A stretch of DNA of 17,891 nucleotides from Micrococcales bacterium (GTDB taxonomy: Bacteria; Actinomycetota; Actinomycetes; Actinomycetales; Dermatophilaceae): assembly GCA_003157445.1 (NCBI GenBank), contig PMJN01000233.1:1-17891 (forward strand), given 5' to 3'. Below, one piece after another: positions 1,151 to 17,190 of the stretch. The translations under genes and the position numbers were made by a program. The first letter of the stretch is position 1; every line of letters begins with the position of its first letter. The notes beneath the pieces are model-generated. The model saw only the letters and a program-made list of their open reading frames with translations. It made no database searches and was not told where the DNA came from.

Positions 1151-1254
1151 GAACCGACGGCCTCAGCGGCGTCCGCTGGCCGATCGATAGGGCGGGATCT
1201 GGCCCCCCTTGACATAGAGGGGAGCCAAATTCGGTAGTTGCCTCGTGTCGGTTC
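1151..1254. repeat. structured intergenic element 1 (nested inverted repeats)
   Basis: An outer inverted repeat GAACCGAC (1151-1158) / GTCGGTTC (1247-1254) encloses a 6-bp hairpin CAGCGG-CGT-CCGCTG (1164-1178) and a block CTTGACATAGAGGGGAGCC (1208-1226). GCGGCGTCCGC is the reverse complement of the GCGGACGCCGC word next to the palindrome centre at 1769-1776. The TTGACATAGAGGGG block recurs inverted at 1811-1833. The element therefore shares parts with element 2 in a different order. Confidence 0.5.
1208..1230 (+). repeat. inverted repeat flanking the 1266-1625 gene, left copy
   Basis: CTTGACATAGAGGGGAGCC plus four bases (AAAT). It matches the reverse complement of 1811-1833 at all but two positions over about 23 bases. 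The two copies lie about 600 bases apart in opposite orientation with the small membrane protein gene between them. It also contains a TTGACA word, but no matching -10 at 17 bases is visible. Confidence 0.6.
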
Positions 1255-1265
1255 AAATGCTTGGG

Positions 1266-1625
1266 CTAGACCTCGGTTCCGCGATTGGTTTCCCACGCGT
1301 GCTTTTCGACCTTTAATCTCAGATCCGCCCGCCGAGCAACCCGATAGTTCAATCCAATCATCACCGCCGTGACCACGAACCCCGCGAGCGTTATCGGGAT
1401 CGCGATGGCTGGATGTTCATGCACGATGGCAAACACGACCATGACAGGTAGGAAGACCAACACTGGGCGGACGTATCGGTGTCTTGACGCGGAGTACTCA
1501 TCCATCGCAGCGTCAGAAGGTACGAACTTTCCTGGACCTTCATCAGCACTCGCCGTGCGGCCCTTTTCCAACTTCTCCCCGTCATGGGTACCGGACACGG
1601 CTCGTGCTTGGTTCTGGTGATCCAC
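1266..1625 (-). CDS. small two-helix membrane protein
   Basis: A 119-residue orphan. A polar, charged N-terminus (1-51) is followed by two hydrophobic segments, about 52-68 (VRPVLVFLPVMVVFAIV) and 73-93 (AIAIPITLAGFVVTAVMIGL), separated by a short EHP turn. A basic tail follows (RVARRADLRLKVEKH), which by the positive-inside rule suggests both termini are cytoplasmic. The listed start is GTG at 1625 with AAGGTC upstream. An internal ATG at 1503-1505 (MDEYSASRHRY) would give a 79-residue protein that still has both helices. No family recognised. It sits alone between two inverted 23-bp repeats. Confidence 0.6.
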   Translation of the reverse strand: MDHQNQARAVSGTHDGEKLEKGRTASADEGPGKFVPSDAAMDEYSASRHRYVRPVLVFLPVMVVFAIVHEHPAIAIPITLAGFVVTAVMIGLNYRVARRADLRLKVEKHAWETNRGTEV

Positions 1626-1650
1626 GGATCGACCTTATGACATCGGCCAG

Positions 1651-1840
1651 ACGACACACTCAATTCGGTAATTGAGGACGTGTTTGCCGACCGCTTGCCG
1701 TCTCGGAAGCGGAACGGCCACCGGGGCATGTGGTCACCGCTCACCACCGCCTCTGGCCATCCCGTAGCGGGATCCCCTGCGGACGCCGCTCGGGTCCTCT
1801 GAACGCACATCTTGGCTCCCCTCTGTGTCAAGACGCGAGG
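1651..1840 (+). repeat. interspersed palindromic element 2
   Basis: The element starts with hairpin CTCAATT-CGGT-AATTGAG (1659-1676) and GAGGACGTGTTTGCCGACCG, which matches the reverse complement of elements 5 and 6. The centre is CCCGTAGCGGGATCCC (1761-1776), followed by CTGCGGACGCCG. The right end carries the inverted copy (1811-1833) of the TTGACAYAGAGGGG block. It is a composite of two sub-types and is the longest copy, at about 190 bases. Confidence 0.65.
1811..1833 (-). repeat. inverted repeat flanking the 1266-1625 gene, right copy
   Basis: On the minus strand this reads TCTTGACACAGAGGGGAGCC then AAG. It matches the copy at 1208-1230 with two substitutions. Confidence 0.6.
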
Positions 1841-1862
1841 TCCGTCGGCATGACCGCGACTA

Positions 1863-2282
1863 CTACCTGGGGAACCGTTCCAGCGGGGTCCGATCGCCCA
1901 CCGACCAACGATGACCAAATGGATCAGTAAAGCCTCCCTGACGATGCAGCCCCCACGGCGCATCGTGCTCAGTCACCGGCTCCACATCGGTCGCGCCAGC
2001 TTGTGCAGCCCGTTCTATGAGGTCATCGGGCGCATCGACGAAGACTTCAATCCGGGTCGTCGTCAGGCCCACGTCCGTCGGGCTCGGCTCCTGATCCTTA
2101 CCCGGCACAGCTTCGTGGAGAAAGAACGGCGCGCCATCAAGGTGAAGCCCGGCAACGCCGCCAAGATCCCACAACTGGCTGACGCCAAGCGCGATCGTGT
2201 ACCAGCTGACCGCGGCGGCAGCGTCGGACACGATCAACATCACCGAGAGGGCTGGGCGTGCAGCCGCGTTGCTCATAGTCAT
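1863..2282 (-). CDS. VOC-superfamily (glyoxalase/bleomycin-resistance-like) protein
   Basis: A 139-residue single-module VOC protein of the DPFGHRW type. Residues 10-35 form the first beta-alpha unit (ALSVMLIVSD, then WYTIALGV). Residue E79 in TRIEVFVDAPDD and the closing motif TDPFGHRWSVG (119-129) are the usual second-half landmarks. Members of this group include glyoxalases, dioxygenases and antibiotic-binding proteins; the substrate cannot be assigned. Two in-frame ATGs (2282 and 2276) lie six bases apart, with GGTGA upstream. It is on the minus strand between element 2 and a 287-base gap, with no operon partner. Confidence 0.85.
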   Translation of the reverse strand: MTMSNAAARPALSVMLIVSDAAAAVSWYTIALGVSQLWDLGGVAGLHLDGAPFFLHEAVPGKDQEPSPTDVGLTTTRIEVFVDAPDDLIERAAQAGATDVEPVTEHDAPWGLHRQGGFTDPFGHRWSVGDRTPLERFPR

Positions 2283-2569
2283 TCACTATGTCACCGGTTT
2301 CGGCGCCCGCCAGTTCGAACATGGCCCGCCTCTGGCTGAACCCGTAGCGCGGCAGCTCTGCATGGGGAACGCTGACGGACGCGGTTACGCCATGATTCTG
2401 GCGCCGCAAGCGGAGCGGCATACGACACAGCGAAAGGTGATCGGTACGCCACCGGGACAAGTCGACTCGCGTCGTTTGTCGTCTTGCGGTACGTCGCTGA
2501 CCACCGGGCACCACCGGGTCTGCCAATCAGCGAGCGGGAAGCAAGGTCGCTCAGTCTTAGGGTTGGGGA
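2283..2569. other. intergenic stretch with no supported gene
   Basis: A minus frame here (2526-2283, continuing into the VOC gene out of frame) includes a mildly protein-like segment (ASVSVPHAELPRYGFSQRRA), but it has no convincing start and overlaps the VOC start. I treat it as non-coding. No palindrome-family member was recognised. Confidence 0.4.
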
Positions 2570-3076
2570 GTGGCAGAGACCGGTAGATCAGGCGTTCTGC
2601 GAGCGATGACGGCGGCAGATGTCCCGAACGTGCTGAACGTCCAGGAGCCAGGGGCCGTTCGCGGGCTCGCGGAGGTGTTTCCACAGGACGCGTATCCATT
2701 TCCTCGAGTGGAGGTCGCGCAGCGTTGGCTGCGGGAGATTGAGGTGCCGGACATCGACTGTTACGTGGTCTTGGTCGACGGCGCGGTGGCGGGATTCGCT
2801 GCGAGTCGTGGCGATGAGTTCTTCCACTTCGGGATCGCCCTCGGGCATTGGGGCACCGGTCTCGCCCAGACCGCGCACGACGCGGTGCTCGATCGGATGC
2901 AAAGTAGGGGCCTTCAGCGTGCCTGGCTAAGGGTCTTCACCAGGAACCGACGAGGCCGACGGTTCTACGAGAAGCTCGGCTGGCACCCGACAGGTGCCCG
3001 CACCCACAGCACGTTTCCGCCATACCCAGAGCTCTTGCGCTACGAACGCGCCGTCGAGCGGCATGCCAAGGGGTGA
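2570..3076 (+). CDS. GNAT-family N-acetyltransferase
   Basis: A 168-residue single-domain GNAT, predicted to transfer an acetyl group from acetyl-CoA to a small molecule or protein amine. Core strands are YVVLVDGAVAGFAAS (65-79) and FHFGIAL (85-91). The CoA-loop region is GHWGTGLAQ (92-100), a diverged R/Q-x-x-G-x-G/A motif. Helix 4 and motif B are RNRRGRRFYEKLGW (125-138). The start is GTG at 2570 with GGGTTGGGG immediately upstream. ATG at 2606 is a poorer alternative because homologous GNATs usually have the VLRAMTAADVP strand intact. The substrate is unknown. Confidence 0.85.
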   Translation: MAETGRSGVLRAMTAADVPNVLNVQEPGAVRGLAEVFPQDAYPFPRVEVAQRWLREIEVPDIDCYVVLVDGAVAGFAASRGDEFFHFGIALGHWGTGLAQTAHDAVLDRMQSRGLQRAWLRVFTRNRRGRRFYEKLGWHPTGARTHSTFPPYPELLRYERAVERHAKG

Positions 3077-3087
3077 ACCTAGGATTC

Positions 3088-3098
3088 GGTGACTCACC
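3088..3098. promoter_or_regulatory. short inverted repeat after the GNAT gene
   Basis: GGTGA-C-TCACC, a perfect 11-base inverted repeat starting 12 bases after the GNAT stop. It could be a protein-binding site or part of a weak terminator. Too short for a firm call. Confidence 0.25.
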
Positions 3099-3134
3099 AC
3101 GCGCATTCTCATAGCCGCGTTGGCGGGCCCGTTC

Positions 3135-3156: not shown

Positions 3157-3264
3157 TCATTGATTGGTATCCGGTCACAGAATCGTTATGCACCAGCGCG
3201 TCGGTCCGGTCTCGGCCACGCCTCGGCTGATTTGGGGGCGCTGTACCGGGAGTAGCGTTCAGCC

Positions 3265-4188
3265 ATGAGAGCGATGGCCTACGACGCGTACGGATCCGAC
3301 GACGTTCTGACCCTGTGTGAGCTGCCGGACCCGAAGGTCGGCCCAGGCGAGGTTCGTATCCGGGTGAGGCGAGCAGGGGTGAACCCGGTCGACTGGAAGG
3401 TGATGTCCGGCGGTCTTGACGGTCTGATGGACGTCGTGTTCCCGGTGGTCCCCGGCTGGGACGTCGCGGGCACGGTCGAGACGGTCGGCATCGACACCCC
3501 GGAGTTCGAGGTCGGCGACGAGGTCGTGGCTTACGCGCGCAAGGACGTCGTCCACGGCGGCACCTTCGCCGAGCTTGTGACCATGAGCGTCCGTGGCGTG
3601 GCCCGCAAGTCCTCGGCGCTCAGCTGGGACGAGGCGGGCGGCCTCCCGCTCACCGGGCTCACCGGGCTGCAGACCCTCGACCGGTTGCGCGTCTCCGCTT
3701 CGGACACAGTCCTCGTGCACGGTGGGGCAGGCGGTGTCGGCGCCCTCGCCGTCCAGATCGCAAGGGCGCGTGGTGCTCGCGTGATCGCCACCGCGTCGCC
3801 GACCAACCACGAGTTCCTCTCCGACCTCGGAGCGACCCCCATCGCGTACGGCGACGGCGTCGTGGAGCGCATTCGCGAGGTCGCGCCGGACGGCGTCGAC
3901 GTGGTCGCCGACTTCGTGGGCGGGGTCCGCGACGTCACGATGGCCGTGCTGGCCGCAGGCGGACGGCACGCGTCCATCGCCGATGCGTCGGTGTTGGAGA
4001 CCGGAGGTTCGTGGTTCTGGGTGCGGCCCTCGGCTGAGGGCCTGGCCGAGCTCGGTCGGCTGGCCGACGCCGGACAGCTGCGTGTCCCTGTCGCCGACGT
4101 CCTGCCGCTCGAGGAGCTGCCCGCGGCGTTCGCGCTCAGCCGCGAGGGGCACGTGCGGGGCAAGCTGGTCATCTCCGTCTCGGACTGA
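3265..4188 (+). CDS. NADP-dependent, zinc-free MDR oxidoreductase (quinone-oxidoreductase-like)
   Basis: A 307-residue medium-chain dehydrogenase/reductase. The N-terminal GroES-like domain (1-about 120) contains GPGEVRIRVRRAGVNPVDWK and PGWDVAG (63-69). The Rossmann domain carries the nucleotide motif VHGGAGGVGALAVQIA (151-166). The zinc-ligand cysteine cluster of alcohol dehydrogenases is absent, which places it with quinone oxidoreductase / zeta-crystallin-type enzymes that reduce quinones or enones with NADPH. The ATG at 3265 gives the usual MRAMAYDAYG beginning; GGGAG lies 12 bases upstream. Third-position GC is high, unlike several neighbours. Probably monocistronic, perhaps controlled by the palindrome at 3135-3156. 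Confidence 0.9.
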   Translation: MRAMAYDAYGSDDVLTLCELPDPKVGPGEVRIRVRRAGVNPVDWKVMSGGLDGLMDVVFPVVPGWDVAGTVETVGIDTPEFEVGDEVVAYARKDVVHGGTFAELVTMSVRGVARKSSALSWDEAGGLPLTGLTGLQTLDRLRVSASDTVLVHGGAGGVGALAVQIARARGARVIATASPTNHEFLSDLGATPIAYGDGVVERIREVAPDGVDVVADFVGGVRDVTMAVLAAGGRHASIADASVLETGGSWFWVRPSAEGLAELGRLADAGQLRVPVADVLPLEELPAAFALSREGHVRGKLVISVSD

Positions 4189-4209
4189 GGCGGTCGACCC
4201 GCGCATTCC

Positions 4210-4395
4210 CTTTAGGCTGCGTCCTACCCGAGCCTCGGGCACGCGTGTAGTCAGCGTCGACGTGGCACAACCCGATCTTCGTCGTCCGGCAGAGGATCCC
4301 TTGCGGACGCCGACGCTGGGTGCCGTCGCACTTGCCGTCTGTGCCCAGAGATCCCCCTGCGGGACGGCGGCCTATCGCAGCGGAGTACGGACCTG
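4210..4395 (+). repeat. interspersed palindromic element 3 (double centre)
   Basis: The first centre is AGAGGATCCCTT (4291-4302), with arms GTCGTCCG (4281-4288) and CGGACGCCGAC (4304-4314). It is followed by GCTGGGTGCCG, shared with element 8. A second centre, AGAGATCCCCCTGCGGGACG, lies near 4347-4366, flanked by GCCGTC (4334-4339) and GACGGC (4363-4368). It fills the gap between the convergent oxidoreductase and GNAT genes, where it could also act as a two-way terminator. Confidence 0.6.
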
Positions 4396-4403
4396 TGCCG
4401 CAG

Positions 4404-4823
4404 TCATTCGCATTCCGGGGCGAGGTAGATCCGAACAGGCAGCCGTTCGCCCTGCGGTGTGACCCAGTCGGCCTGCCGACGGTCCACCAGGCGCCACCCA
4501 AGGCGCTCGTACAGCCTTATCGCTGGTGTTCCGACATCGACGACATCGAGCATCAGTCGACAGTCATGCTCCAACGTCCACGACGAAACTGCCGCGAGCA
4601 ACGACGTGCCAAGCCCGAGTCCCCGGCCGCGCGCAACCGGTGACACAAACAGACGCGAGACGCTGGCTAGGCGGTCCGTGCTGACGCCGGTCAGCGAAGC
4701 GATCATCGGGTCGTCGACCCCGCGCACAACGCAGACATGACCCAGGATTGAGCCGGTCACGTCATCGTAAGCGACCCATGCCGCTGCGCACCCGTTCGGG
4801 CTGAGCCACACGGCTGGGTCCAC
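4404..4823 (-). CDS. GNAT-family N-acetyltransferase, probably N-terminally truncated
   Basis: The 139 residues begin at GTG 4823. Core motifs are intact: VSRLFVSPVARGRGLGLGTS (55-74, with the R-G-R-G-L-G CoA loop) and AIRLYERLGW (101-110). The protein starts at DPAVWLSPNG, which in GNAT proteins lies just before strand 2. Strand 1 and helices 1-2 (typically 30-45 residues) are missing. The reading frame upstream closes at a TGA only seven codons before the GTG, so no longer start exists. No good Shine-Dalgarno is seen. It is probably a broken or reduced gene whose 5' end was lost at the junction with the divergent amidase module. Confidence 0.75.
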   Translation of the reverse strand: MDPAVWLSPNGCAAAWVAYDDVTGSILGHVCVVRGVDDPMIASLTGVSTDRLASVSRLFVSPVARGRGLGLGTSLLAAVSSWTLEHDCRLMLDVVDVGTPAIRLYERLGWRLVDRRQADWVTPQGERLPVRIYLAPECE

Positions 4824-5046
4824 AGGAGCATGGGTCTTCGCTTCTCACATGGACTTCGCGACTCCCCCCAGCGTCGTCCGTGTCCAGGACGGTCAGGAGG
4901 TCACGAACGAACGCGGTGAGGCCATCGGTGAGCCACTCCGGGGTGGCACCACGGCTTCCGCCTCAGCGTGGACGACCACCAGGGCCCTCAAACGCGTATG
5001 GCACTTCAGAACTACCGCTTTGGTCGGCTCGTTAGAGTTTGTCCAT

Positions 5047-5859
5047 GTGAGATGCACTCGTCGATATGCCGCTATGTCGCTTGCGGGCGCGACGGCACTC
5101 ATGTTGACCTTAGCCGGCTGTGCAGGTGCTACCGCGCCTTCGACCGCACCGACGTTGCAGACGCCCACCGCCTCCAGCAGTTTGACCACCAGCATGGTGG
5201 CACCAACCCCGACGGCCCACGTTCCCAAGCCCGCGATCACCACGCCTGCCATCACCAAGGCACCCGGCTCCGTGCCCCCCTCGTTGCTGCGTCTGGTGCC
5301 AAAGCTCATCGACTTCCCTCAGCAGCGCAAGGACGAGATGGCGACATACTCCCTGAGGCATTATGGCGCGAGCAGTTGGCAGCTCAAACCCACGATGATC
5401 GTCCTGCACTTCACAGAGACCGACACCGCGGAGGTAGCTCGCAACGCGTTCGCGAACGACTCGCCGAACCTCGGGGAGCTGCCCGGCACCTGCGCCCACT
5501 TCATCGTTGCCCAGAACGGGGACGTGTGGCAGATCGTTCCAACGAGTGTCAGGTGCCGGCACACGATTGGCTTGAACGATAAGGCGATCGGCATCGAGAT
5601 GGTCCAGCGCACGCAAGGCAACAGCTCTCACTGGGCCGATCAGCAGATCCTCGACCGGCCGGCGCAAATTGGTGCGGTCTTGGCCCTGTTGCGTTTCCTG
5701 CAGCGCGAGTATGGCATCAGCACGAGCAACATCATCGGTCACGCCACGGCAAACGAAGCGCCTCAGTTCCGGGACTTGCAGGGTTGGCGCAACGACCACA
5801 CCGACTGGCAGGCCCAGGATGTTCTCGAGGTGCGTCACCGGTTGTCCGCACTCCGCTGA
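5047..5859 (+). CDS. secreted lipoprotein amidase (N-acetylmuramoyl-L-alanine amidase, Amidase_2/PGRP fold)
   Basis: From GTG 5047 the product is 270 residues: VRCTRRY, a hydrophobic stretch, then lipobox LAGC with Cys25, giving a type II signal peptide. A Thr/Pro/Ala-rich linker (26-80) precedes the zinc amidase domain (about 110-265). Visible landmarks are IVLHFTET (His121), FIVAQNGDVWQIVP, CRHTIGLNDKAIGIEMV (His172), NIIGHATANE and DHTDWQ (His251/Asp253). These match the zinc ligands and core of Amidase_2 peptidoglycan hydrolases. The frame is open upstream to ATG 4849, but those extra 66 residues are not signal-like. It likely cleaves the amide between muramic acid and L-Ala in the cell wall. 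Confidence 0.85.
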   Translation: MRCTRRYAAMSLAGATALMLTLAGCAGATAPSTAPTLQTPTASSSLTTSMVAPTPTAHVPKPAITTPAITKAPGSVPPSLLRLVPKLIDFPQQRKDEMATYSLRHYGASSWQLKPTMIVLHFTETDTAEVARNAFANDSPNLGELPGTCAHFIVAQNGDVWQIVPTSVRCRHTIGLNDKAIGIEMVQRTQGNSSHWADQQILDRPAQIGAVLALLRFLQREYGISTSNIIGHATANEAPQFRDLQGWRNDHTDWQAQDVLEVRHRLSALR

Positions 5860-5950
5860 GGATTTGGGCAGCCTCCCGTGAGCCGCTGTAATGGCGTCAA
5901 GCCGTGCGGCGTCGGGAGAGCCGTTGCAGATGTTCTACGTGGAGGGCGAT

Positions 5951-6100
5951 GCCCGTAGACAAACGGCCTACGGGCACGCGCGGAGCTGCGCCGACCTGGA
6001 ACAAACCTGATCTTCGTCGTTCCGTATCGGGATCCCGTTGCGGAACGACGAAAGCCATCTTTGTGCCGGGTCGGAACGGCCTCCGCGTGTGCCCGTAAGC
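5951..6100. repeat. interspersed palindromic element 4, best-preserved long inverted repeat
   Basis: Arms of about 67 bases (5966-6032 and 6033-6100) match at roughly three quarters of positions. The inner core is CGGGATCCCG (6028-6037). Outside a 3x3 internal loop comes a perfect 12-bp stem TTCGTCGTTCCG (6013-6024) / CGGAACGACGAA (6041-6052). The outer ends are GCCTACGGGCACGCGCGGAG and its diverged complement ending GTGCCCGTAAGC. An extra 8-bp hairpin GCCCGTAG / CTACGGGC (5951-5975) sits on the left edge. It is between the amidase and the 6217 leader ORF. Confidence 0.8.
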
Positions 6101-6216
6101 ATCGTTAGGTTGCGGTGACCGGTCGATGACTGAGGAGACTATAGAGTCAGCACGCCCGAGATGACTCCTTGGCCTATCGCAACCATCGTGCTCGTCACGG
6201 CCCAACAGGAGGAGCA

Positions 6217-6318
6217 ATGGCAATGGCGCAGCTGACAGCAGGCAAAACGTGTGCGACCGTCACCGATTCCGTTGTCGCCCAATGCCGGCTCGCGCGCAAG
6301 CCTGGATCTAACGGATGA
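6217..6318 (+). CDS. 33-residue leader ORF coupled to the next gene
   Basis: ATG 6217 is preceded by AGGAGGAG (6207-6214), the strongest ribosome-binding site in the window. The 33-codon product begins MAMAQLTAGKTCATVTDS and ends ARKPGSNG. Its TGA (6316-6318) overlaps the next gene's ATG (6315-6317) as ATGA, the classic arrangement for translational coupling. The following gene has no good binding site of its own. Either this is a regulatory leader peptide or a small protein made with its partner. No family recognised. Confidence 0.55.
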   Translation: MAMAQLTAGKTCATVTDSVVAQCRLARKPGSNG

Positions 6319-7331
6319 CCGAGCTGTCGACATGCGATCTAGCGGTGCGGGTTCTGCGGCAGCAACGGACCGCGATGATGGCGATGCTCGGCGAAGCACT
6401 GGATGCCTACAAGAGTCCAGTCGACAGCTCGCCCCGATCAGCAGACGACGACTGGATCAACACTCAGCCGCGGGTTTGGCGCGAGGCGCTCAACGGCATT
6501 CTGGGCCTCGCCACCGAGCAAGTTGCCGAACTGCTGCGCGTCGCCGACGAGCATGCTGTCGCACTCGAGGTGCTCCTCAAGGCCGACGAGGTGCTGCCGA
6601 TCCCGATGACCACCCTCGTCCGATCGATCCACGAAGCGTTCATCGGTGTGTGCTGGTCGGTCGACCCCACGCTCACCTGCGAGCAACGTATGACCAGATC
6701 AGCCGCAGGCACCCTGGCCAGCAGTCAAGGAAATCTCGGCCCACTCCGCCAGCTGCAGAACCCGCCCGCAGCGCACGTCGTCCAAGTCGAACAGGCCGTT
6801 CAGGGAATGCAGGACTACCTCGAAAAGCATGGATTCAAACTGAACTACGACAAGCAGACCTCGAAGATGGCGACCAGCGTCGCCTATGGCACCAGCCGCG
6901 CCGCGCTCAAGCTCAACGTCACCGAGGCAAGCCTCAGATACATGCCCGGCTCGCACCACATGTGGTCGCTCGGCTCGGGCGCCACACACTCTCGCAACTG
7001 GTTCACCGCCGGCCTGGCCGGCTCTCGCAGCCAGCTCACCATCATGGTCATGGCCCCGCTGCTCGACTTCGCTGACACCCTAGTCGACAACGTCTCGGAC
7101 TACGTCGGACTCGACACGCAGCAGTTTCACCAGAAGGCACACCTGCGCCGCCGCATGCTGCTCGCACGCAACGACGGGAGGCAGTTCGGCAGTGTCACGC
7201 TGGGTTACACCGACTACGCGGCCGACCGAGACAAGGCACTCATGGCACCCGGGAGCGCGCCACCGTCCACCCCGACCTGCCCCGGGCAGGAGTCGAACGG
7301 ATCCATGAATGCGGCCAACCGCGCTGGGTAG
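6315..7331 (+). CDS. hypothetical helical cytosolic protein
   Basis: 338 residues, no signal peptide or clear membrane segment. The predicted character is mainly alpha-helical: ILGLATEQVAELLRVADEHA (78-97) and ALEVLLKADEV, then a conserved-looking block RSIHEAFIGVCWSVDP (103-118) with nearby EQRMTRSAA. Toward the C-terminus, a histidine-rich segment MPGSHHMWSLGSGATHSRNW and a helix follow. This spread of Arg/Glu/His in helices loosely recalls DUF5677-like or HEPN-like proteins, but I see no diagnostic motif. An in-frame TAA just before ATG 6315 fixes the start. The last about 25 residues are low-complexity and may be read-through. Confidence 0.7.
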   Translation: MTELSTCDLAVRVLRQQRTAMMAMLGEALDAYKSPVDSSPRSADDDWINTQPRVWREALNGILGLATEQVAELLRVADEHAVALEVLLKADEVLPIPMTTLVRSIHEAFIGVCWSVDPTLTCEQRMTRSAAGTLASSQGNLGPLRQLQNPPAAHVVQVEQAVQGMQDYLEKHGFKLNYDKQTSKMATSVAYGTSRAALKLNVTEASLRYMPGSHHMWSLGSGATHSRNWFTAGLAGSRSQLTIMVMAPLLDFADTLVDNVSDYVGLDTQQFHQKAHLRRRMLLARNDGRQFGSVTLGYTDYAADRDKALMAPGSAPPSTPTCPGQESNGSMNAANRAG

Positions 7332-7346
7332 CACCCTGACCGGGTG
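7332..7346. terminator. hairpin directly after the 6315 gene
   Basis: CACCC-TGACC-GGGTG begins at the base after the TAG. The stem is 5 bp and there is no T-run, so it is a weak candidate terminator. It is also the left edge of element 5. Confidence 0.3.
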
Positions 7347-7420
7347 GCGTTCCGTAATCGGGACGGCGGAAGGTCGACAAACACGACCGCAGATACTGAA
7401 TGTAGTGCGTCGGGGTAGAC
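7347..7420 (-). repeat. interspersed element 5 (ATCGGGACGGC / hairpin sub-type)
   Basis: Plus-strand order: GTTCCGTAATCGGGACGGC, then AAGGTCGACAAACACGACCG, then an imperfect hairpin ending AGTGCGTCGG. The same order occurs at 9350-9410 and, inverted, at 1655-1710. It separates the 6315 gene from the convergent interrupted gene ending at 7432. Confidence 0.6.
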
Positions 7421-7431
7421 GCTTCACTGCC

Positions 7432-7890: not shown

Positions 7891-8115
7891 CTACCGCCAG
7901 TAGTACAGCTCCGTGGGGTCGTCGGGATACGTCACGCCGTAGTCGACGCCCGGCTCCGGAACCTCGACGGCGTCTCCCTCGGGGTCGAGAGGCCGCCAAG
8001 CGGAGTCCCGTTCGACGTTCGGCGGATCTAAGCGGTCAACGCGCGTGCCCTGAATTTCGTCGGGATGATCATGGAGAAGCCGACGCGATGGATGACGCTG
8101 CAGGAGTTGCACCAC
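7891..8115 (-). CDS. small hypothetical protein (uncertain)
   Basis: From tandem GTG codons at 8115 and 8112 the 74-residue product reads VVQLLQRHPSRRLLHDHPDE, continues IQGTRVDRLDPPNVERD and ends GVTYPDDPTELYYWR. The C-terminal half is acidic and proline-rich with plausible composition. The N-terminal third overlaps a competing plus-strand frame (8065-8193, MIMEKPTRWMTLQELHHELE), which also looks protein-like. No Shine-Dalgarno clearly favours either. The upstream 8116-8408 stretch has coding-like fragments in more than one frame and may be a decayed gene. Confidence 0.4.
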   Translation of the reverse strand: MVQLLQRHPSRRLLHDHPDEIQGTRVDRLDPPNVERDSAWRPLDPEGDAVEVPEPGVDYGVTYPDDPTELYYWR

Positions 8116-9266: not shown

Positions 9267-9572
9267 CGTGAGCTTTCCGCTCGGGGGTCGGCCTCGACGA
9301 ACATCCGCTCTATGCCGCGATGGGCGTGTGACCTTGTTCGGTGAGGGGATCGGTGATCGGGACGGCAAACGGTCGAGAAACACGTCCTCAATGCCGAATT
9401 GAGGACGTCTAGGAAGATGGTCAGAGGCTCAAAACGTTGTCCTCGCGGTTCGGCTCGTCGCGTTGTCACGCCAACCATCAAGGGTCTCTCGTCGGGGTTA
9501 TCACGGGTGGTGCAGCGCCCCATGCTGACAGAGAGAGCCAGTTCCGACGGTAGGGCGAAGAGGTGAGGCGCG
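9267..9572. other. gene-free stretch of about 300 bases containing element 6
   Basis: Apart from element 6 (9335-9411) I see only short shadow frames on both strands. One minus frame near 9250-9320 (MFVEADPRAESSRHT) is mildly protein-like but lacks support. Confidence 0.4.
9335..9411 (-). repeat. interspersed element 6 with 11-bp perfect hairpin
   Basis: Contains GGGATCGGTGATCGGGACGG, then CAAACGGTCGAGAAACACGT, and ends in a perfect hairpin ACGTCCTCAAT (9382-9392) / ATTGAGGACGT (9398-9408) with loop GCCGA. Its reverse complement matches element 2 (1655-1710) at about four of five positions, and element 5 follows the same order. The hairpin is strong enough to act as a terminator, but no T-run follows. 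Confidence 0.7.
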
Positions 9573-10029: not shown

Positions 10030-10035
10030 CGACGC

Positions 10036-10219
10036 ACTGTCATAGCCGCATTTCGCGCGGTCGTCACGAAGGCCCCTGGCTGCCAGGTGTTCGTAACGGG
10101 ATCCCCCTACGGAGCGACGAAAACCCTGCTTGTGCCAGCGCGGAACGGCCTCCGCGCGTGCCCGCTGGCCGTTCCCTGATTCGGACGGACGGTCTTGAAG
10201 TCGCGGTCCTTGGCGGTGG
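10036..10219 (+). repeat. interspersed palindromic element 7 with 46-bp exact repeat
   Basis: Begins CTGTCATAGCCGC. The centre is AACGGGATCCCCCTACGGAG (10096-10115). The right arm GCGACGAAAACCCTGCTTGT then GCCAGCGCGGAACGG aligns with element 4. It continues into GTTCCCTGATTCGGACGG and on to CTTGGCGG (10171-10216), identical over 46 bases to 17138-17183. The left arm is only partly palindromic. It lies in front of the FRG gene. Confidence 0.75.
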
Positions 10220-10345
10220 AAAGGGGGAGCGGGTACTCCGACTGTCATGGCGGGCGCGGCCCCTCAGCACTTCTGGATGATTCGAGTCGGCGTCTTGAAC
10301 TACGTTGTTCCAGTGATGTCGGGACCTGCAGAAGAGGGGACGGAG

Positions 10346-11956: not shown

Positions 11957-12190
11957 CCCGAGAGAGGCCAGGCGGCCAGGCGGCCACGCGCCCACCGACA
12001 AGCCGCACCGCGACATCAACCGCTCGGTCGCGGCCACACCCTCGAAGGCTCGACCCCATCGCCGGGGCCATGCCCCAGCGAGCCAGCCTCGCCACCGTCT
12101 TTGTGGGCGAATAGACGCGCGACATCGGCATTTGAGGTCGTCGGCCTTTTGCCGCCCCGATTACCGAACGCTGAGCGACGCCTCAGGATG
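11957..12190. other. gene-free GC-rich stretch after the FRG gene
   Basis: A short tandem repeat GGCCAGGC / GGCCAGGC sits at about 11966-11987. No ORF with a ribosome-binding site or protein-like composition was found on either strand. Together with element 8 and its flanks the gap before the next start is 529 bases. Confidence 0.45.
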
Positions 12191-12194
12191 CCTC

Positions 12195-12305
12195 GATTCG
12201 GACCCCGGCGGCGAAGTTTGCGATCCCGTGCGGGGATCCACTTTCGGACGTCGACGCTGGGTGCCGGACCATCTTCGTGGCGCTCCAGCGGTCGTCCACT
12301 ATCGA
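12195..12305 (+). repeat. interspersed palindromic element 8
   Basis: The centre GATCCCGTGCGGGGATCC (12222-12239) is followed by ACTTTCGGACGTCGACGCTG and GGTGCCGGACC. The run GCGGACGYCGACGCTGGGTG (TCGG in this copy) is shared with element 3 (4303-4322). Same sub-type as element 3. Confidence 0.6.
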
Positions 12306-12485
12306 GACGGTGGATGGGATAAGACACGACCGGATGTCTACCTGCTCTTCAATCGGCCAGGATCGGGGACGTCCGCAAGGGCAACGCCAAGATCAACCCG
12401 GATTGAACGGGCAGGCTTCCGCTCCGTACAGGTGTTGAGATGCGGGTGGCAAAGATGGGAAGGTCAACCCATGGAGGCTCTCGCG

Positions 12486-13235
12486 ATGATCGACACCGCG
12501 TTCGACTTCAGGACTGACGCGGGTGCAAGGGACCCCGACAAGCACAGCCCCACACTGCGCCGATACCACCGACTGTTGTGGAGCAAGGCACTGCCCGGCG
12601 GCGAGACCTTCAAACTGGACGACACCACCCCTGACGAATACCTACATCACCGTTCTCAGCTTGGCGAGTTCTTCCTGGCCAGCGACTCGGTGATCCCGAC
12701 ATTCAGGGATTACATGAGGATGCAATCCATCGTCACCCAACTTCCGGAAGCAGACAAGGAAGCGTTCGAGACCATCAGTTGCACCATCGGCGGGATGCTG
12801 CTTTTCCCCAGCAACAAGATCGACGGCAAACCGACGATCAACGGAGCCCGAGGACTCCATCCCAGGATCGCAGACAGGATCGACCTCACCCTTGAGTGCA
12901 TCCGACGCCATTACCGATTCGAGGCCAGCCCACTCGATGAAACACTGCAGCGTTACCGCGACTTCTTCTCGCTGTTCGGTGACTTCCCCGGCTATGTGGA
13001 GTTCTTCCTGCTGCAGGACCTCATCACAGATGACGCCGGCCGGGTCAAGTTCTCCATGCACTTCGACGACTTCACAACCCCAGCACTCCCGCGAGACATC
13101 GAGACCTACAAGGAGTACCAGCGACTCACTATCGAGTTCGTCAAAGCGAGAAACAACCGCATACATCAATGGGACATTGGCCATCTGCAACAGACGCCTG
13201 AACACACGGGGCCGCCGGGACCACTGAGCCGATAG
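12486..13235 (+). CDS. DUF6994-like hypothetical protein
   Basis: 249 residues from ATG 12486 (GGAGG at 12473-12477, eight-base spacer); an ATG at 12471 adds five residues. It begins MIDTAFDFRTDAG, then DPDKHSPTLRRYHRLLWSKA, followed by GGETFKL. The centre has TIGGMLLFPSNKIDGKPTIN and GARGLHPRIADRIDLTLECI, then RRHY. I recognise this layout as the family annotated DUF6994, with no known function; the identification is from memory of the family pattern. No signal peptide or membrane segment. The C-terminus ends in a short proline/glycine tail. Convergent with the methyltransferase gene. Confidence 0.8.
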   Translation: MIDTAFDFRTDAGARDPDKHSPTLRRYHRLLWSKALPGGETFKLDDTTPDEYLHHRSQLGEFFLASDSVIPTFRDYMRMQSIVTQLPEADKEAFETISCTIGGMLLFPSNKIDGKPTINGARGLHPRIADRIDLTLECIRRHYRFEASPLDETLQRYRDFFSLFGDFPGYVEFFLLQDLITDDAGRVKFSMHFDDFTTPALPRDIETYKEYQRLTIEFVKARNNRIHQWDIGHLQQTPEHTGPPGPLSR

Positions 13236-13288: not shown

Positions 13289-13330
13289 GGCCGGCGCAAA
13301 CCTTTCTCAGTGACTTCGTTGAAGCCGGCC
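13289..13330. terminator. possible bidirectional terminator between convergent genes
   Basis: GGCCGGC (13289-13295) and GCCGGCC (13324-13330) can pair across a 28-base loop, in the 116-base gap between the two convergent stop codons. The loop is long and there is no T-run, so this is weak. Confidence 0.25.
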
Positions 13331-13351
13331 GCTAGAGGGCTGGCCCCACGG

Positions 13352-14170
13352 TCAGTGGCGCGCCTGAAGGACCGAGCGGCGCGTGTCCACGACCGTCACC
13401 TCGTCGCCACGGGTCACGATGAGGCCTCGGCTCGCAATCTCAGCGAGTCCTGCGATGGTGTCATCGTCCAGCTGGTCCGCATCACTGAGCAGTGCTGTAA
13501 CGATCTCGAACTGATCAGGGGTGAAGAGCGACGCGGCGAGTGCCTGTTCGATCCGCGTTGGGTAGAGCGCCCCGACATTGGGGTGCTTGCGGACTAGCTG
13601 GTTCAACATCGGCTGGCTCGGATCCACCCCGGCGTACCGGTCGGGCGTCGTCACGCCGAGATCAAGGATCCGACCGGTCCCACAACCTACGTCCAGGACC
13701 GCAGGCGGGAAGTCGCCACTCAGCGAGGCGACCGCGGCGCGGAGGGTCCTGGTCATCTCGTCGGACGCCGGATGCAGCCGGTCGTACGCCGTCGCGAGGC
13801 TGTCATAAGGAGTCTGGAGACTGGAGTCGGTCGACGGCGCGTTCTGCACGCCGTACAACCGGTCGGTGGTCGACTGGTTGATGAGGTTTGTCTCCGTGAC
13901 TTCGCGGTCCATCGTCCACCACTTCAACCGCCCGTCAGGGCTCATGAGGTAGATGCTTGTCATGCCGTAGAACTTCGCAGGCCTGCCGAAGGTGTGGATC
14001 ACTCTTCCGGCGCGCACATAGTCGTCCTTGGTCATCTCGGGTGTGCGTCCGAGCACCACGTAGCTGTGGGGTGCTTTCTGGGCGTAGGTGCTCGCGAACG
14101 TCCAATCCAGCGCGGGTGCGAGCCCGACCCACCAGTCAAGGTCTGCCTGCACGATCCGGTCCTGCTTCAT
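13352..14170 (-). CDS. class I SAM-dependent methyltransferase with extra N-terminal domain
   Basis: 272 residues. Residues 1-110 form a separate domain (LDWWVGLAPALDWTFASTYA, then HSYVVLGRTPEMTKDDYVRA) with an aromatic-rich pair FYGMTSIYLMSPDGRLKWWT and EVTETNLIN. Residues 120-272 are the methyltransferase: YDSLATAYDRLHPASDEM, motif I AVLDVGCGTGRILDLG (157-172), the acidic residue of motif II in YAGVDPSQPML (Asp183), and a truncated C-terminal half. The C-terminal domain is shorter than a typical 200-250-residue class I enzyme. ATG 14170 is preceded by AGGG and AGGA. Substrate unknown. Confidence 0.8.
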   Translation of the reverse strand: MKQDRIVQADLDWWVGLAPALDWTFASTYAQKAPHSYVVLGRTPEMTKDDYVRAGRVIHTFGRPAKFYGMTSIYLMSPDGRLKWWTMDREVTETNLINQSTTDRLYGVQNAPSTDSSLQTPYDSLATAYDRLHPASDEMTRTLRAAVASLSGDFPPAVLDVGCGTGRILDLGVTTPDRYAGVDPSQPMLNQLVRKHPNVGALYPTRIEQALAASLFTPDQFEIVTALLSDADQLDDDTIAGLAEIASRGLIVTRGDEVTVVDTRRSVLQARH

Positions 14171-14269
14171 CGTCCTAGCCCTACCCTCATTCGCCCGGTT
14201 CAGCTCACCGAAAGCATGCCATCGCCCTCCGACAGAGCCCGACGGCCTGAAGTCTCATCCCCGAACGGT

Positions 14270-14400
14270 CCTCCTGTCATAGCCGCGGTGGGTGTTCGTT
14301 CTTGTCCGTAGACCGATCCCGCTACGGAACCCGAATGTCCCATGCTGCGTCCTATCGGCCGTGTTCCGCGCGGCTGCTTCGAACTGCCGCACCTACAGTC
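14270..14400 (+). repeat. interspersed palindromic element 9
   Basis: Starts CTCCTGTCATAGCCGCGGTG (the TGTCATAGCCGC word is shared with element 7, at similar distance from the centre). The centre is CCGATCCCGCTACGGAACCC (14311-14330), then ATGCTGCGTCCTATCGGCCG. It stands between divergent genes. Confidence 0.5.
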
Positions 14401-14405
14401 GGGCC

Positions 14406-15026: not shown

Positions 15027-15068
15027 TCGACCCGGGCCCTGTCCTTCACGTTGACGACGCCTGAACGA

Positions 15069-15082: not shown

Positions 15083-15179
15083 GCACACACGTACCGTCCG
15101 TTCAGAGCCGCGCACAGCGCGCTTGTGTCGCATGCCGATCGTCATACGGGACGCTCATTAGCGGGGTACGCGCCTGTGG

Positions 15180-15614
15180 TCAGGCGCTTTGGTGTCTGTC
15201 GAGGTAGCTGGCGAGGGCCTCGCGCATGACCTCGGAGGGCTTCAGGTGGGCGCGGCTGGTGTAGGCGGTTAGGCGCTGGTCCAGGTCCGCTGGCAGGCGG
15301 ACCTGCCTGGAGCGGGACCTGCCTGTTCCGGTGGTGCCGGTCAAGGTAGGGCGGCCTCGGCCGCGGGTCTTGGCAAGTTCGTTACGGGTGAAGGCCTCGA
15401 ACGGGGAGTCCTGGGCTGGGTCAGCGGGTAGAGCGGCCGCCAGCAGTGCGCGGACGCCCTCGTGGCGTGTGTCGCGGCTTGCGGGCGTGCTGGTCTTGGC
15501 TGCCTCGGCAAAGGCGGCGGTGGCGTCTGGGGTCTGGGCCCAGTCGGCGAGAGCGTCGTAGTCCATATCGATGTCGTTGGTGTCTGTGTTGTTGGTAGGG
15601 CGGGTGTTCTGCAT
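15180..15614 (-). CDS. ribbon-helix-helix antitoxin
   Basis: 144 residues, second gene of a two-gene minus-strand unit. An N-terminal acidic, Thr/Asp-rich segment (1-35) is the likely toxin-binding region. A middle helical part (52-83) and a basic RGRGRPTL linker precede the C-terminal ribbon-helix-helix DNA-binding fold (102-140): SRQVRLPADLDQRLTAYTSR then AHLKPSEVMREALASYLD. The RHH is at the C-terminus. ATG 15614 has AGGAG at ten-base spacing. It follows the toxin stop by 43 bases. RHH antitoxins usually repress their own operon through the upstream palindrome. Confidence 0.8.
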   Translation of the reverse strand: MQNTRPTNNTDTNDIDMDYDALADWAQTPDATAAFAEAAKTSTPASRDTRHEGVRALLAAALPADPAQDSPFEAFTRNELAKTRGRGRPTLTGTTGTGRSRSRQVRLPADLDQRLTAYTSRAHLKPSEVMREALASYLDRHQSA

Positions 15615-15657
15615 GGTGGGTGCTCTCCTGACGGCGAGAGTCGAGGTGGTGGGGGCG

Positions 15658-15924
15658 CTAGGTGAAGAGGTCGAGGTTGCGCTGCTGCGCGGCCTGGACG
15701 TGGAAGATGACCAGCGTGCGGCCTTGTCTGACGACCATGACTTCGATCAGCGGCACCAGGACGTCGGGTGTGGACGGTGGGCCGATGTAGAGGTCCGGCG
15801 CCGGTCCTGACGTGCGACTGGCGGCGGTGAGCGGCCCGTAGCGACAGTTCAGCATCGCGTGGATGGCGTCTTGCTTGGTGTAGCCGTGGCGTGCGGCCGA
15901 CGTGGTGAACTCGATCCCCTGCAC
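15658..15924 (-). CDS. toxin of type II toxin-antitoxin pair (BrnT/RelE-fold-like)
   Basis: From GTG 15924 the product is 88 residues: VQGIEFTTSAARHGYTKQDA, then a Gly/Pro loop, a strand DLYIGPP, and EVMVVRQGRTLVIFHVQAAQ then QRNLDLF. The HGxT entry, the two central strands and VIFH near the end fit small BrnT/RelE-like nuclease toxins. Toxin-before-antitoxin order matches BrnTA. A GTG at 15942 (V-R-Y-N-I-Q) is also possible, but TACAAT sits at -12 to -7 of GTG 15924, the exact geometry of a leaderless actinobacterial transcript. No Shine-Dalgarno precedes either GTG. Confidence 0.7.
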   Translation of the reverse strand: MQGIEFTTSAARHGYTKQDAIHAMLNCRYGPLTAASRTSGPAPDLYIGPPSTPDVLVPLIEVMVVRQGRTLVIFHVQAAQQRNLDLFT

Positions 15925-15930
15925 CTGAAT

Positions 15931-15963
15931 ATTGTAGCGCACTATTTAGTTTGATTTGATAGT
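15931..15963 (-). promoter_or_regulatory. toxin-antitoxin promoter and likely operator
   Basis: On the minus strand TACAAT (15931-15936) forms a -10 whose start point would be the G of GTG 15924. Upstream, ACTAT (15941-15945) and ATAGT (15959-15963) form an inverted repeat with a 13-base AT-rich spacer, plausible half-sites for the RHH antitoxin. No clear -35 is seen. This AT-rich patch stands out from the GC-rich surroundings. Confidence 0.5.
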
Positions 15964-15983
15964 ACCAAAATACGTCAGTGGGG

Positions 15984-16100
15984 GTTGGGAGACAACCCTT
16001 ATGAGGATCCCGCTACGGGACGACCAGCGTGGCGTTGAACAACACCGTCAAACGTTCCGCAGACCGTTCCGCCATCGGGACGGTCAGGACTTGGTCCGCT
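15984..16100 (+). repeat. interspersed palindromic element 10
   Basis: A hairpin GGGTTG-GGAGA-CAACCC (15982-15998) is followed by the centre GAGGATCCCGCTACGGGACG (16003-16022), then CCGTTCCGCCATCGGGACGG (16065-16084), matching the GTTCCGTAATCGGGACGG word of element 5. It lies between the toxin promoter and the zinc-knuckle gene. Confidence 0.6.
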
Positions 16101-16204
16101 GCCTCGCACCGGGGTTCTCTACCTCCCCAGCCCTGTTGCTGAGAAGAATGAGCCCGTATGTCCTGCGGGCGGCTAGAGCCTCCGACGTGTTAGATCGGGG
16201 GGTG

Positions 16205-16603
16205 ATGCTGGAACAGCGGAGGTCATGTGCCGTTTGCGGCCGCGACCTTCTTTGGTCGCAGCGCCGCGACGCGAGGTTCTGCAGTGCCCGGTGTCGCCAA
16301 CGCAACTTCCGCAGCGGGCAACGCTTTCCGCGGCTTCCTTCCGAAGTGCGCCGTGACCAGCTGGATAGCACTGAGCTGCGTTCCTTCAGGGATGACATGC
16401 CCGCGATGTGGAAGTTCAGCGACGTGGTCTTCATCGAGTACTCCAGCCCGGTCCCCTGTTTCAGCTGCCGAGTCCAAGGCACTGAGGTCCTCGGGTTGCT
16501 CTACCGAGTTCGCAACAAAGTACCCAGTGAATTCGTGGCCGTGTTCTGCAGCGAAGACTGTCTGCTGAACGCAGTCCATGACACGAGATTCGCCGGCTCG
16601 TAG
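16205..16603 (+). CDS. double zinc-knuckle small protein
   Basis: 132 residues from ATG 16205, with a G-run (GGGGGGTG) directly upstream; GTG 16202 and ATG 16149 are alternatives. Two matching cysteine sets are seen: C8-x2-C11 with C26-x3-C30 (CAVCGRDLLWSQRRD, then RFCSARCRQRNF), and C85-x2-C88 with C115-x3-C119 (CFSCRV, then FCSEDC). Each CxxC...FCSxxC unit is a treble-clef or FCS-type zinc knuckle, so the protein probably has two structural zinc sites. Such modules usually bind nucleic acid or protein. No catalytic domain is visible. Confidence 0.75.
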   Translation: MLEQRRSCAVCGRDLLWSQRRDARFCSARCRQRNFRSGQRFPRLPSEVRRDQLDSTELRSFRDDMPAMWKFSDVVFIEYSSPVPCFSCRVQGTEVLGLLYRVRNKVPSEFVAVFCSEDCLLNAVHDTRFAGS

Positions 16604-16644
16604 GCTCCCCGGACCGCATCAAGCCCGTACGCGCGTAACGCCTA

Positions 16645-16705
16645 CAGGCCCCTGACCTGCGGATCCTCGGTGGACGCGGAATCTTCGTGCTCGCGGTGCT
16701 GGACG
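16645..16705 (+). repeat. possible partial element 10b
   Basis: CTGCGGATCCTCGGTGGACG then CGGAATCTTCGTGCTCGCGG resembles the centre-right half of element 8 (GGATCC, TTTCGGACG, CATCTTCGTGGCGC). Partial and weak. Confidence 0.3.
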
Positions 16706-16732
16706 ATTGTGACCAAGTACAGAGAGGCTGTT

Positions 16733-16754
16733 GGGCCGTTCGCACGAACGGCCC
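16733..16754. terminator. strong hairpin, 10-bp perfect stem
   Basis: GGGCCGTTCG (16733-16742) and CGAACGGCCC (16745-16754) pair with two bases between. A second, smaller hairpin CCTG/CAGG follows. It is located 130 bases after the zinc-knuckle gene and 65 before the next start. It is a candidate terminator or operator; there is no T-run. Confidence 0.5.
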
Positions 16755-16819
16755 CCTGCTACAACAGGAGGCCGTTCTGGACCCGTCGCTCCCAGCATTA
16801 GGACGAAGGGATTCCTGCA

Positions 16820-17011
16820 ATGAAGGTACGGCACAAGCGAGGCTCGGTCGACCCCCGTGAGGGTTCCTCTCGGGACCCGAACTGGGCGACAGCACTGGTG
16901 CTTGGCGCTCTCGCCATGGGCACGCTGGTCATCACTGGCTCACCACACGATGTGCCGGTCGTGGTGGGCGCAGTGGTGGTGGCACTTGGCGTCTCCCCGC
17001 GCGACAGGTGA
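16820..17011 (+). CDS. small two-helix membrane protein
   Basis: 63 residues from ATG 16820, with AAGGGA about eight bases upstream. A basic/acidic hydrophilic start (MKVRHKRGSVDPREGSSRDP) is followed by helix 1 (22-39, ATALVLGALAMGTLVITG), a short SPHD turn, and helix 2 (45-58, VPVVVGAVVVALGV). It ends SPRDR. The layout is like the two other orphan small membrane proteins in this window (1266-1625 and 9573-9803), but there is no obvious sequence similarity. No family recognised. Confidence 0.6.
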   Translation: MKVRHKRGSVDPREGSSRDPNWATALVLGALAMGTLVITGSPHDVPVVVGAVVVALGVSPRDR

Positions 17012-17049
17012 GGTCGCTGACACGACCCAATCAGCCGAGCCACTGGAAG

Positions 17050-17190
17050 TTCAATCTCAGCGGAGCCATCCCGCTCCGGGACGAGCAAAACCATGTTTGT
17101 GCCAGTTCGGAACGGTCTCCGCGCGTGCCCGTAGCGGGTTCCCTGATTCGGACGGACGGTCTTGAAGTCGCGGTCCTTGGCGGCGGTATG
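17050..17190 (+). repeat. interspersed palindromic element 11 with 46-bp exact repeat
   Basis: Centre CATCCCGCTCCGGGACGAGC (17068-17087), then AAAACCATGTTTGTGCCAGT, TCGGAACGG, CTCCGCGCGTGCCCGTAGCG, and 46 bases (17138-17183) identical to 10171-10216. Same orientation and layout as element 7. The left arm is poorly conserved, as in element 7. Confidence 0.75.

What the first reader, a model, noticed from the sequence alone, without database searches (positions are those of the whole stretch)
1151..17190. An interspersed family of palindromic elements punctuates almost every module
At least eleven intergenic places share words around a GGATCC/GGGATCCC centre with GTAGC/GCTAC flanks, plus arms such as TTCGTCGTTCCG, CGGAACGACGAA, GCGGACGCCGACGCTGGG and GTGCCCGTAGC. 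The copies are at 1151-1254, 1651-1840, 4210-4395, 5951-6100, 7347-7420, 9335-9411, 10036-10219, 12195-12305, 14270-14400, 15984-16100 and 17050-17190. The copies are diverged and shuffled, so arms of one sub-type occur next to centres of another. This looks like a mosaic recombination site or a non-autonomous mobile family that builds the island. The function is inference; the shared words are seen directly.
Basis: partly seen in the sequence, partly recalled or inferred. Interest (0 to 1): 0.8.

Follow-up and report, generated by a model that had tools for sequence, protein, structure and literature searches.

The report
Palindromic sites joining shuffled gene modules
An actinobacterial genome carries stretches of one- to three-gene modules separated by a 28-base palindromic DNA site, and comparison with relatives suggests that modules are joined, copied and removed at that site by an enzyme not yet identified.

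Summary
The eleven places share a degenerate 28-bp palindrome, GTYCCGTA-N4-GATC-N4-TACGGRAC (centre GATC, sometimes GTTC/GAAC). A matrix trained without the window finds 18 sites in it, hitting all eleven places, against 1.55 per shuffled window. In the genus, sites often form composite units, a GATC core and a GTTC core 59-73 bp apart in fixed polarity (25 of 27 pairs).

The "mosaic recombination site" reading is largely supported. Several window modules recur at 82-99% identity in other contexts. Intergenic ends of shared blocks lie within 8 bp of a site six times more often than random intergenic points, though only 18 of 191 do. One site is empty in our genome and holds an 885-bp insert in a congener. 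A 3-contig genome of another genus has one single-gene module twice, about 950 kb apart, its right end stopping at the site centre.

No integron integrase passes the cutoff in four genomes. The recombinase is unknown, and insertion-type rivals are not excluded.

The parts
9..119 (+). Composite unit, type E: GATC core centred at 21 and GTTC-type core at 92, 71 bp apart
1170..1197 (.). One-sided core site, centre 1182; two short shared blocks (1127-1186 in G002, 1124-1186 in G001) end here
1700..1786 (-). Composite unit, type B: GATC core at 1771, GTTC-type core at 1712, 59 bp apart; a shared block starts at 1770
4224..4301 (-). Type A unit, diverged; a block shared with G003 ends at 4235, near its outer edge; a block shared with own C512 starts at 4295
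4338..4365 (.). One-sided core site, centre 4350; start of the block shared with own C275
5957..6104 (.). Two type A units head to head on a full core site, centre 6031 (GTTCCGTATCGGGATCCCGTTGCGGAAC)
6100..7351 (+). One-gene module (ORF 6315-7331), 97% identical in G002:C135 in another context and there without the flanking type A and type C units
7337..7364 (+). GTTC-type core site, centre 7349 (type C); found with the held-out matrix, just under threshold with the other
8005..8032 (.). One-sided GTTC-type site, centre 8017; weak
9336..9363 (+). Full core site, centre 9348, followed by a perfect 11-bp hairpin at 9382-9408
10034..10187 (+). Type D arm (10034-10103), GATC core at 10100, type A unit, GTTC-type core at 10171
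12223..12250 (.). Core site, centre 12235
13304..14294 (-). One-gene module (methyltransferase-domain ORF 13352-14170), 87% identical in own C412 in another context
14303..14330 (.). Full core site, centre 14315
15125..15152 (.).
15994..16081 (+). Composite unit, type C: GATC core at 16006, GTTC-type core at 16066, 60 bp apart
17055..17153 (+). Composite unit, type A: CATC-centred core at 17067 and GTTC-type core at 17138, 71 bp apart

Best explanation
The window belongs to a set of gene-module arrays. Neighbouring modules, one to three genes each (9 of 13 gene-bearing stretches between sites hold one gene), meet at a 28-bp near-palindromic core site, GTYCCGTA-N4-G[A/T]TC-N4-TACGGRAC. Each half of a site belongs to one of the two adjoining modules (shown for the A-type arm: it is paired with 24 different partners). 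A recombinase, inferred and not identified, pairs two sites with the same centre and exchanges strands within or beside the central tetranucleotide. A module between two sites can then be excised, probably as a circle bearing one site, and inserted at another site (inferred). Because the site is nearly symmetric, modules can enter in either orientation (mixed orientations are seen; the cause is inferred). The 59-73 bp GATC/GTTC composite units are probably gene-less modules or specialised module ends (inferred).
For: Sites: 18 in the window against 1.55 shuffled with a held-out matrix; 311 half-sites against 62 in one shuffle over the array loci; 27 near-core 28-mers with 8 or fewer mismatches against 0.33. 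Mosaic: scattered module homologues; several modules (87-99%) are more alike between species than a core flank (81-85%). Ends: 18 of 191 intergenic block ends within 8 bp of a site, 1.5% for random intergenic points; 4 of 42 within 4 bp in G147, 0.17 expected. Empty and filled site: L101 and L118, 885 bp between two GATCCC. Duplicated module in G147. Re-paired halves: 24 partners in 24. Independent occurrence: pattern in 9 of 182 other family genomes, 11 places, 4 of them with GTTC/GAAC centre; the reversed control gives 3 places in 186 genomes.
Against: No recombinase is identified. 173 of 191 intergenic block ends are not at a detected site. Only one empty/filled pair with a non-repeat flank involves a site; 20 of the 22 gapped pairs listed do not. 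The 6100-7351 block occurs in G002 without the flanking units, so those units were not carried with it. Insertion with a duplicated GATCCC fits the empty/filled case equally well. Four genus genomes are fragmented and incomplete, and block ends are not independent of one another.
Confidence: 0.57

Rival explanations
1. The elements are MITE-like or IS-derived palindromic insertions with a GATC target preference. They accumulate in gene-poor accessory regions, and the modules move by ordinary homologous or illegitimate recombination, partly between copies of the repeat.
For: Type A is a 77-bp unit with inverted ends and many copies, all 33 listed copies outside predicted genes; the one empty/filled pair fits an insertion with a duplicated GATCCC; most block ends are not at sites; a module recurs in G002 without the units.
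Against: The DNA across the centre from the A-type arm usually looks like a half-site itself (18 of 24, against 10.2% beside any GATC). Very different units share only the 28-bp core and the spacing. In G147 modules end at core sites although type A was not found outside the genus.
Confidence: 0.25
2. The arrays are moved by the housekeeping XerC/XerD recombinases, as the dif modules of Acinetobacter are; the 28-bp core is a dif-like site of this family.
For: Length and layout fit an 11+6+11 bp Xer site; XerC and XerD homologues are present; G147, G006 and G169 have sites but only Xer-like matches at 27-33% to the candidate recombinase, so a universal enzyme would explain them.
Against: The core is near-symmetric, whereas pdif sites have distinct XerC and XerD halves (PMC13141974, passages). 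The genus's own dif was not located, so likeness to dif is untested.
Confidence: 0.12
3. The palindromes are transcription signals (terminators or operators), and the module pattern is coincidental.
For: Sites lie mostly between genes: 75 of 306 are in predicted genes.
Against: No bias to convergent or divergent gaps: 36 of 119 convergent, 30 of 118 divergent and 74 of 291 co-directional gaps hold a site. The arms do not covary. Density falls about 13-fold in control contigs.
Confidence: 0.03
4. The mosaic is an assembly artefact of metagenome bins.
For: The genus genomes are fragmented (280-551 contigs).
Against: The same site and boundary behaviour occurs in G147, a 3-contig, 99% complete genome. 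The words shared across junctions are a few bases long, too short for k-mer joins (inference).
Confidence: 0.03

Closest known systems
Integron gene-cassette arrays (IntI, attC)
   Same: Arrays of small modules with accessory functions (acetyltransferases, glyoxalase-like, methyltransferase, FRG-domain and a weak antitoxin match in the window), separated by imperfectly palindromic elements and differing between relatives.
   Different: No integron integrase above cutoff in 4 genomes; genes in both orientations; arms do not covary; the core GATC/GTTC with TACGGRAC is not the RYYYAAC/GTTRRRY of attC (that motif is recalled). IntegronFinder 2.0 reports no complete integron in Actinobacteria (PMC9024848, passages).
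dif modules (pdif sites, XerC/XerD) of Acinetobacter
   [quoted passage not shown] here the site is near-symmetric, found on chromosomal contigs in the genomes searched, with two centre classes and paired composite units. Sequence likeness to this genus's dif is untested.
MITE / REP-like palindromic repeats
   Same: Short, multicopy, palindromic, intergenic, without coding capacity.
   Different: Boundaries of gene modules coincide with the core in two genera, and the far side of the centre is usually a half-site.
Recombinase-in-trio (RIT) elements
   Same: Runs of adjacent tyrosine recombinases exist in G000:C183, G001:C244, G002:C131 and G002:C196; the name RIT is recalled, and one search gave only a listing.
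   Different: No core site on the G000:C183 contig and one on the G001:C244 contig, so no link was shown.

Membership tests
Integron | Integron integrase (IntI) in the genome | tested here: not met
   TIGR02249 over its cutoff in 0 of 4 genus genomes; best 83.9 bits, cutoff 265. The genomes are 69-96% complete.
Integron | attC sites with R and L boxes at module ends | tested here: inconclusive
   A crude finder gave 30 candidates, 9 with a good stem, in 381 kb of array contigs and 0 in 127 kb of control; several of the 9 looked like coding sequence or the same hairpin read on both strands. No calibrated attC model was at hand.
Integron | Recombination element conserved as a folded strand (arms covary) | tested here: not met
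   121 sites: outer eight bases 473 of 968 paired, 511.4 shuffled; inner four 198 of 484, 184.5 shuffled, P=0.11. In 21 sites of other genera the inner four do match, 48 of 84 against 31.8, P=2e-4.
Integron | Array of mostly single-gene modules | tested here: met
   9 of 13 gene-bearing stretches between window sites hold one gene.
dif module | 28-bp site, two recombinase arms around a short spacer | tested here: met
   Held-out matrix, 28-bp symmetric core; that two protomers bind the arms is inferred.
dif module | Asymmetric XerC/XerD halves, alternating C and D modules | tested here: not met
   Both halves follow one consensus; 121 sites have both halves at 5 bits or more.
dif module | Sequence related to the chromosomal dif of the host | not tested
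   The genus's dif was not located.
dif module | Movement depends on XerC/XerD | not testable with these tools
   Needs an experiment.
MITE | Clean insertion of the unit with target duplication in an otherwise conserved place | tested here: inconclusive
   No insertion of the 59-77 bp unit alone was seen among the 22 gapped pairs; the 885-bp insert fits a GATCCC duplication.
MITE | Autonomous element with the same ends | not tested
   No search for transposases with these ends was made.

The most novel reading that the evidence does not exclude
A previously undescribed gene-cassette system of one actinobacterial family: chromosomal arrays in which small gene modules are exchanged by site-specific recombination at symmetric 28-bp sites with two compatible centre classes (GATC and GTTC), filling the role of integrons in a phylum where complete integrons have hardly been found.
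Probability: 0.4. Interest if true: 0.9.

Novelty: new variant of a known kind. Interest (0 to 1): 0.7.

Why it matters
Integrons are almost absent from Actinobacteria (PMC9024848, passages: no complete integron, one In0, a few CALIN in the genomes surveyed). How these bacteria gather and reshuffle single accessory genes is therefore open. A defined 28-bp site makes such arrays easy to find, makes module gain and loss countable, and gives a concrete substrate with which to look for the enzyme.

Tried and rejected
Covariance-model route: RNAalifold on 18 type A copies gave no supported structure, so a sequence-only model was built. Its matches outside the genus, in 26 of 143 genomes at E 1.6e-4 to 0.01, were treated as chance.

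Integron search: TIGR02249 and a crude attC finder, negative or unconvincing.

Recombinase hunt: 21 tyrosine-recombinase matches in the own genome. A Xer-like family (G002:C256:1473-2387) matches in all four genus genomes (48-96% identity outside the query itself, several of them fragments, in G001 only 64 residues at a contig edge), four times in G027 and as fragments in G020. It has no strong two-sided core site beside it and no close match in three other array-bearing genomes, so it is only a candidate.

A first breakpoint test (GATC within 24 bp: 46 of 167 ends, 13.9% background) was replaced by the site-based one. That test dropped matches under 130 bp or 80% identity, ends within 40 bp of a contig end or of N, and control contigs as queries.

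Of eight apparent indels, three lie at N runs (L120 with L231 and with L220; L215 with L097) and were dropped; three others shown have no core site (L102 with L233, window 3217 with L229, L227 with L223); one (L216 with L097) was not examined.

Plasmid and phage collections: no match to 10034-10190. Viral contigs: no match to two patterns. The 21-bp inverted pair at 1208-1228 and 1812-1832 had no exact match in the other 164 loci then held.

In 21 sites of other genera the inner four bases of the arms do match (P=2e-4). This goes against the no-covariation reading there; most of those loci were fetched through a palindromic pattern with free inner bases.
Full report
WHERE IT IS. The window is contig C253 of an unnamed 3.8-Mb genome in 551 contigs, 68.6% complete. 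Three congeners are held (G001-G003). G001 is very probably "Actinobacteria bacterium UBA4719": the 189 unmasked bases of its named contig lie unchanged in G001:C191, a contig of the same length. A type A word also occurs in "Mycobacteriaceae bacterium Chersky_398". The source of the sample is not known to me. No tRNA and no Rfam family was found in the window.

WHAT THE ELEMENTS ARE. The longest shared word is a 77-bp unit, type A. A sequence-only model finds 54 matches at E<=1 in the own genome, 31 of them at E<=4.2e-8 (150 of 2460 candidates were scored). With stricter filters and 28 candidates scored per genome, 28, 4, 2 and 5 matches were reported in G000-G003, and only weak ones in 26 of 143 other genomes. 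By a crude gene caller none of 33 listed copies overlaps a gene. Type A does not fold by itself. Quite different units (B, C, D, E) share with it only a 28-bp near-palindrome. Iterating from type A ends gave a half-site matrix G[A/T]TC-SNNN-TRCGGRAC, with 311 hits against 62 in one shuffle of the array loci. Density is 9.5 per 10 kb in the window and 0.71 per 10 kb in the control contigs (9 sites, 3 of them intergenic). The controls were 20 own stretches, 19 taken at near-regular contig numbers and one (C400:1-20000) chosen by hand; three were wholly N, leaving 127 kb. The other own contigs were chosen for carrying hits or recombinases, so their density (3.6 per 10 kb) is biased upward. Intergenic fraction is 34% in own array contigs and 18% in controls.

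COMPOSITE UNITS. Among sites 57-73 bp apart there are 27 pairs, with modes at 71 (10 pairs), 70 and 59 (4 each). In 25 of them one core has a GATC (once CATC) centre and the other a GTTC centre, in one polarity. Many of the 71-bp pairs are copies of one family, type A, so these are not 25 independent cases; types B, C and E repeat the pattern. Gene directions around them show no bias (6/6/6/4 of 22 with both neighbours). In the stretches fetched from other genera no pair falls in that range; the nearest is 78 bp.

MODULES IN OTHER CONTEXTS. Searching the window against the genus gives no colinear homologue but scattered blocks: 6100-7351 at 97% in G002, 3217-4235 at 95% in G003, 13304-14294 at 87% in own C412, 4295-4826 at 93% in own C512 and 4350-4826 at 93% in own C275, 17400-17891 at 90% in own C416, 14745-15141 at 88% in own C205, 17175-17317 at 99% in G002, 5282-5860 at 82% in G002; weaker matches exist too. 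For contig C103 a core flank (10132-13061) is colinear in all three congeners at 85, 83 and 81%, while the larger matches of the part before it are scattered blocks at 74-94%. So several modules are more alike between species than this core flank is, as expected of recent lateral transfer.

BLOCK ENDS AND SITES. From 211 matches (130 bp or longer, 80% identity or more) come 253 distinct ends, 191 of them intergenic. Within 8 bp of a site lie 18 of the 191; random intergenic points in the same contigs give 1.5% (P=1e-9 with ends treated as independent, which they are not fully). In the window these are 1770, 4350 and 15141. Ends at 4295, at 1186 (two short matches), and at 3954 and 4340 in C103 also fall on a GATC. 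Most ends do not. Decay, other insertions and undetected sites are possible reasons, or the sites explain only part of the traffic.

EMPTY AND FILLED. Own C441 reads left flank - GATCCC - type A. G001:C215 has the same left flank and type A with 885 bp between two GATCCC copies. The insert ends resemble half-sites. Site-specific recombination and insertion with a duplicated GATCCC both fit this case; that the target is itself a core site favours the former. One search lists 22 gapped pairs. Two involve a site: this one, and the head-to-head pair at window 6031 compared with C103, where two A units enclose 1.7 kb but both flanks are repeats. The other 20 do not.

OTHER GENERA. The 28-bp pattern with up to 2 mismatches hits 13 of 186 genomes of the family: all four of the genus (15 places) and nine of 182 others (11 places), while the reversed control hits 3 places in 3 of the 186. 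Four of the 11 outside places have a GTTC or GAAC centre. Groups of intergenic sites appear in G020:C118 (8 within 5 kb), G147:C2 (8 within 20 kb), G006:C2 (4) and G169:C1 (4). In G147 (3 contigs, 99% complete) 4 of 42 block ends lie within 4 bp of a site centre against 0.17 expected (P=2.7e-5). A module with an alpha/beta-hydrolase gene occurs at about 832 kb and 1779 kb of one contig. The main part is 97% identical over 760 bp and stops at the GAT of the site centre. The 121 bp before it are 85% identical and begin at the outer edge of the left site. The first copy is interrupted by 1.4 kb with inverted ends that looks like an insertion sequence.

STRUCTURE OR HALVES. If the element acted as a folded strand, the two arms should covary. 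In 121 two-sided sites of the genus they do not (outer eight bases 473 of 968 pairs, 511.4 when shuffled; inner four 198 of 484 against 184.5, P=0.11). The sites were picked for both halves, which limits the outer-base test. The 24 occurrences of the A-type arm have 24 different partners; 18 of these carry CG at the consensus place, against 10.2% beside any GATC. This is what a junction of two independent module ends looks like. In 21 sites of other genera the inner four bases do match (P=2e-4), so the picture is not uniform.

ENZYME. Unknown. No integron integrase passes its cutoff in the four genus genomes. XerC and XerD homologues are present. A Xer-like tyrosine recombinase family, whose closest solved relative by sequence is XerD, recurs in the genus, G027 and G020, but in G147, G006 and G169 only matches at 27-33% were found, and no strong core site flanks it.

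LITERATURE. Seen: passages of PMC9024848 (integrons in Actinobacteria) and PMC13141974 (dif modules); otherwise listings and abstract starts. None of these seven listings showed a system with these sites. Most subscription papers are not in the library, so this is no proof of novelty.

VERDICT. Observation confirmed; interpretation partly supported. Best reading: an integron-like or dif-module-like cassette arrangement with its own near-symmetric site and an unidentified recombinase. On re-checking, the confidence of the best explanation is set at 0.57 and interest at 0.70, because most gapped pairs and most block ends do not involve a site.

Noticed in passing
window 1208-1228 and 1812-1832: A 21-bp inverted pair, 95% complementary (CTTGACAYAGAGGGGAGCCAA), flanks the 1266-1625 ORF; no exact match in the other loci then held.
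   Followed up: partly
L121:11695-11858; also L144, L151, L154, L162: A second repeat family of about 160 bp that begins with GATCCTTTGCGGAC and ends beside another GATC; it may be a gene-less module.
   Followed up: partly
L098:612, L098:3274, L099:6356, L132:2550 and others: A perfect or near-perfect palindrome GATCGGTGACCGGTCACCGATC, often directly beside a core half-site.
   Followed up: partly
L254:1473-2387 (G002:C256); L235:8448-9361; G027:C2, four places: A recurrent Xer-like tyrosine recombinase family, 85-96% identical between genomes in several copies, often fragmented or with stops.
   Followed up: partly
L235:9945-13086; L273:518-3599: Three adjacent tyrosine recombinases, like a recombinase-in-trio element; the first runs off its contig.
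   Followed up: no
window 15180-15614 and 15658-15942: Two adjacent small ORFs, the first with a weak match to a RelB-like antitoxin family below its cutoff; perhaps a toxin-antitoxin pair.
   Followed up: no
L102:1537-2031: An ORF beside a type A copy with matches below cutoff to lincosamide nucleotidyltransferase families.
   Followed up: no
L221:8785-12732: Three repeated blocks of about 1.1 kb, also similar to parts of L243 and L099; not studied.
   Followed up: no
L311:3706-5130: A 1.4-kb stretch with inverted ends inside the duplicated hydrolase module of G147, probably an insertion sequence.
   Followed up: no
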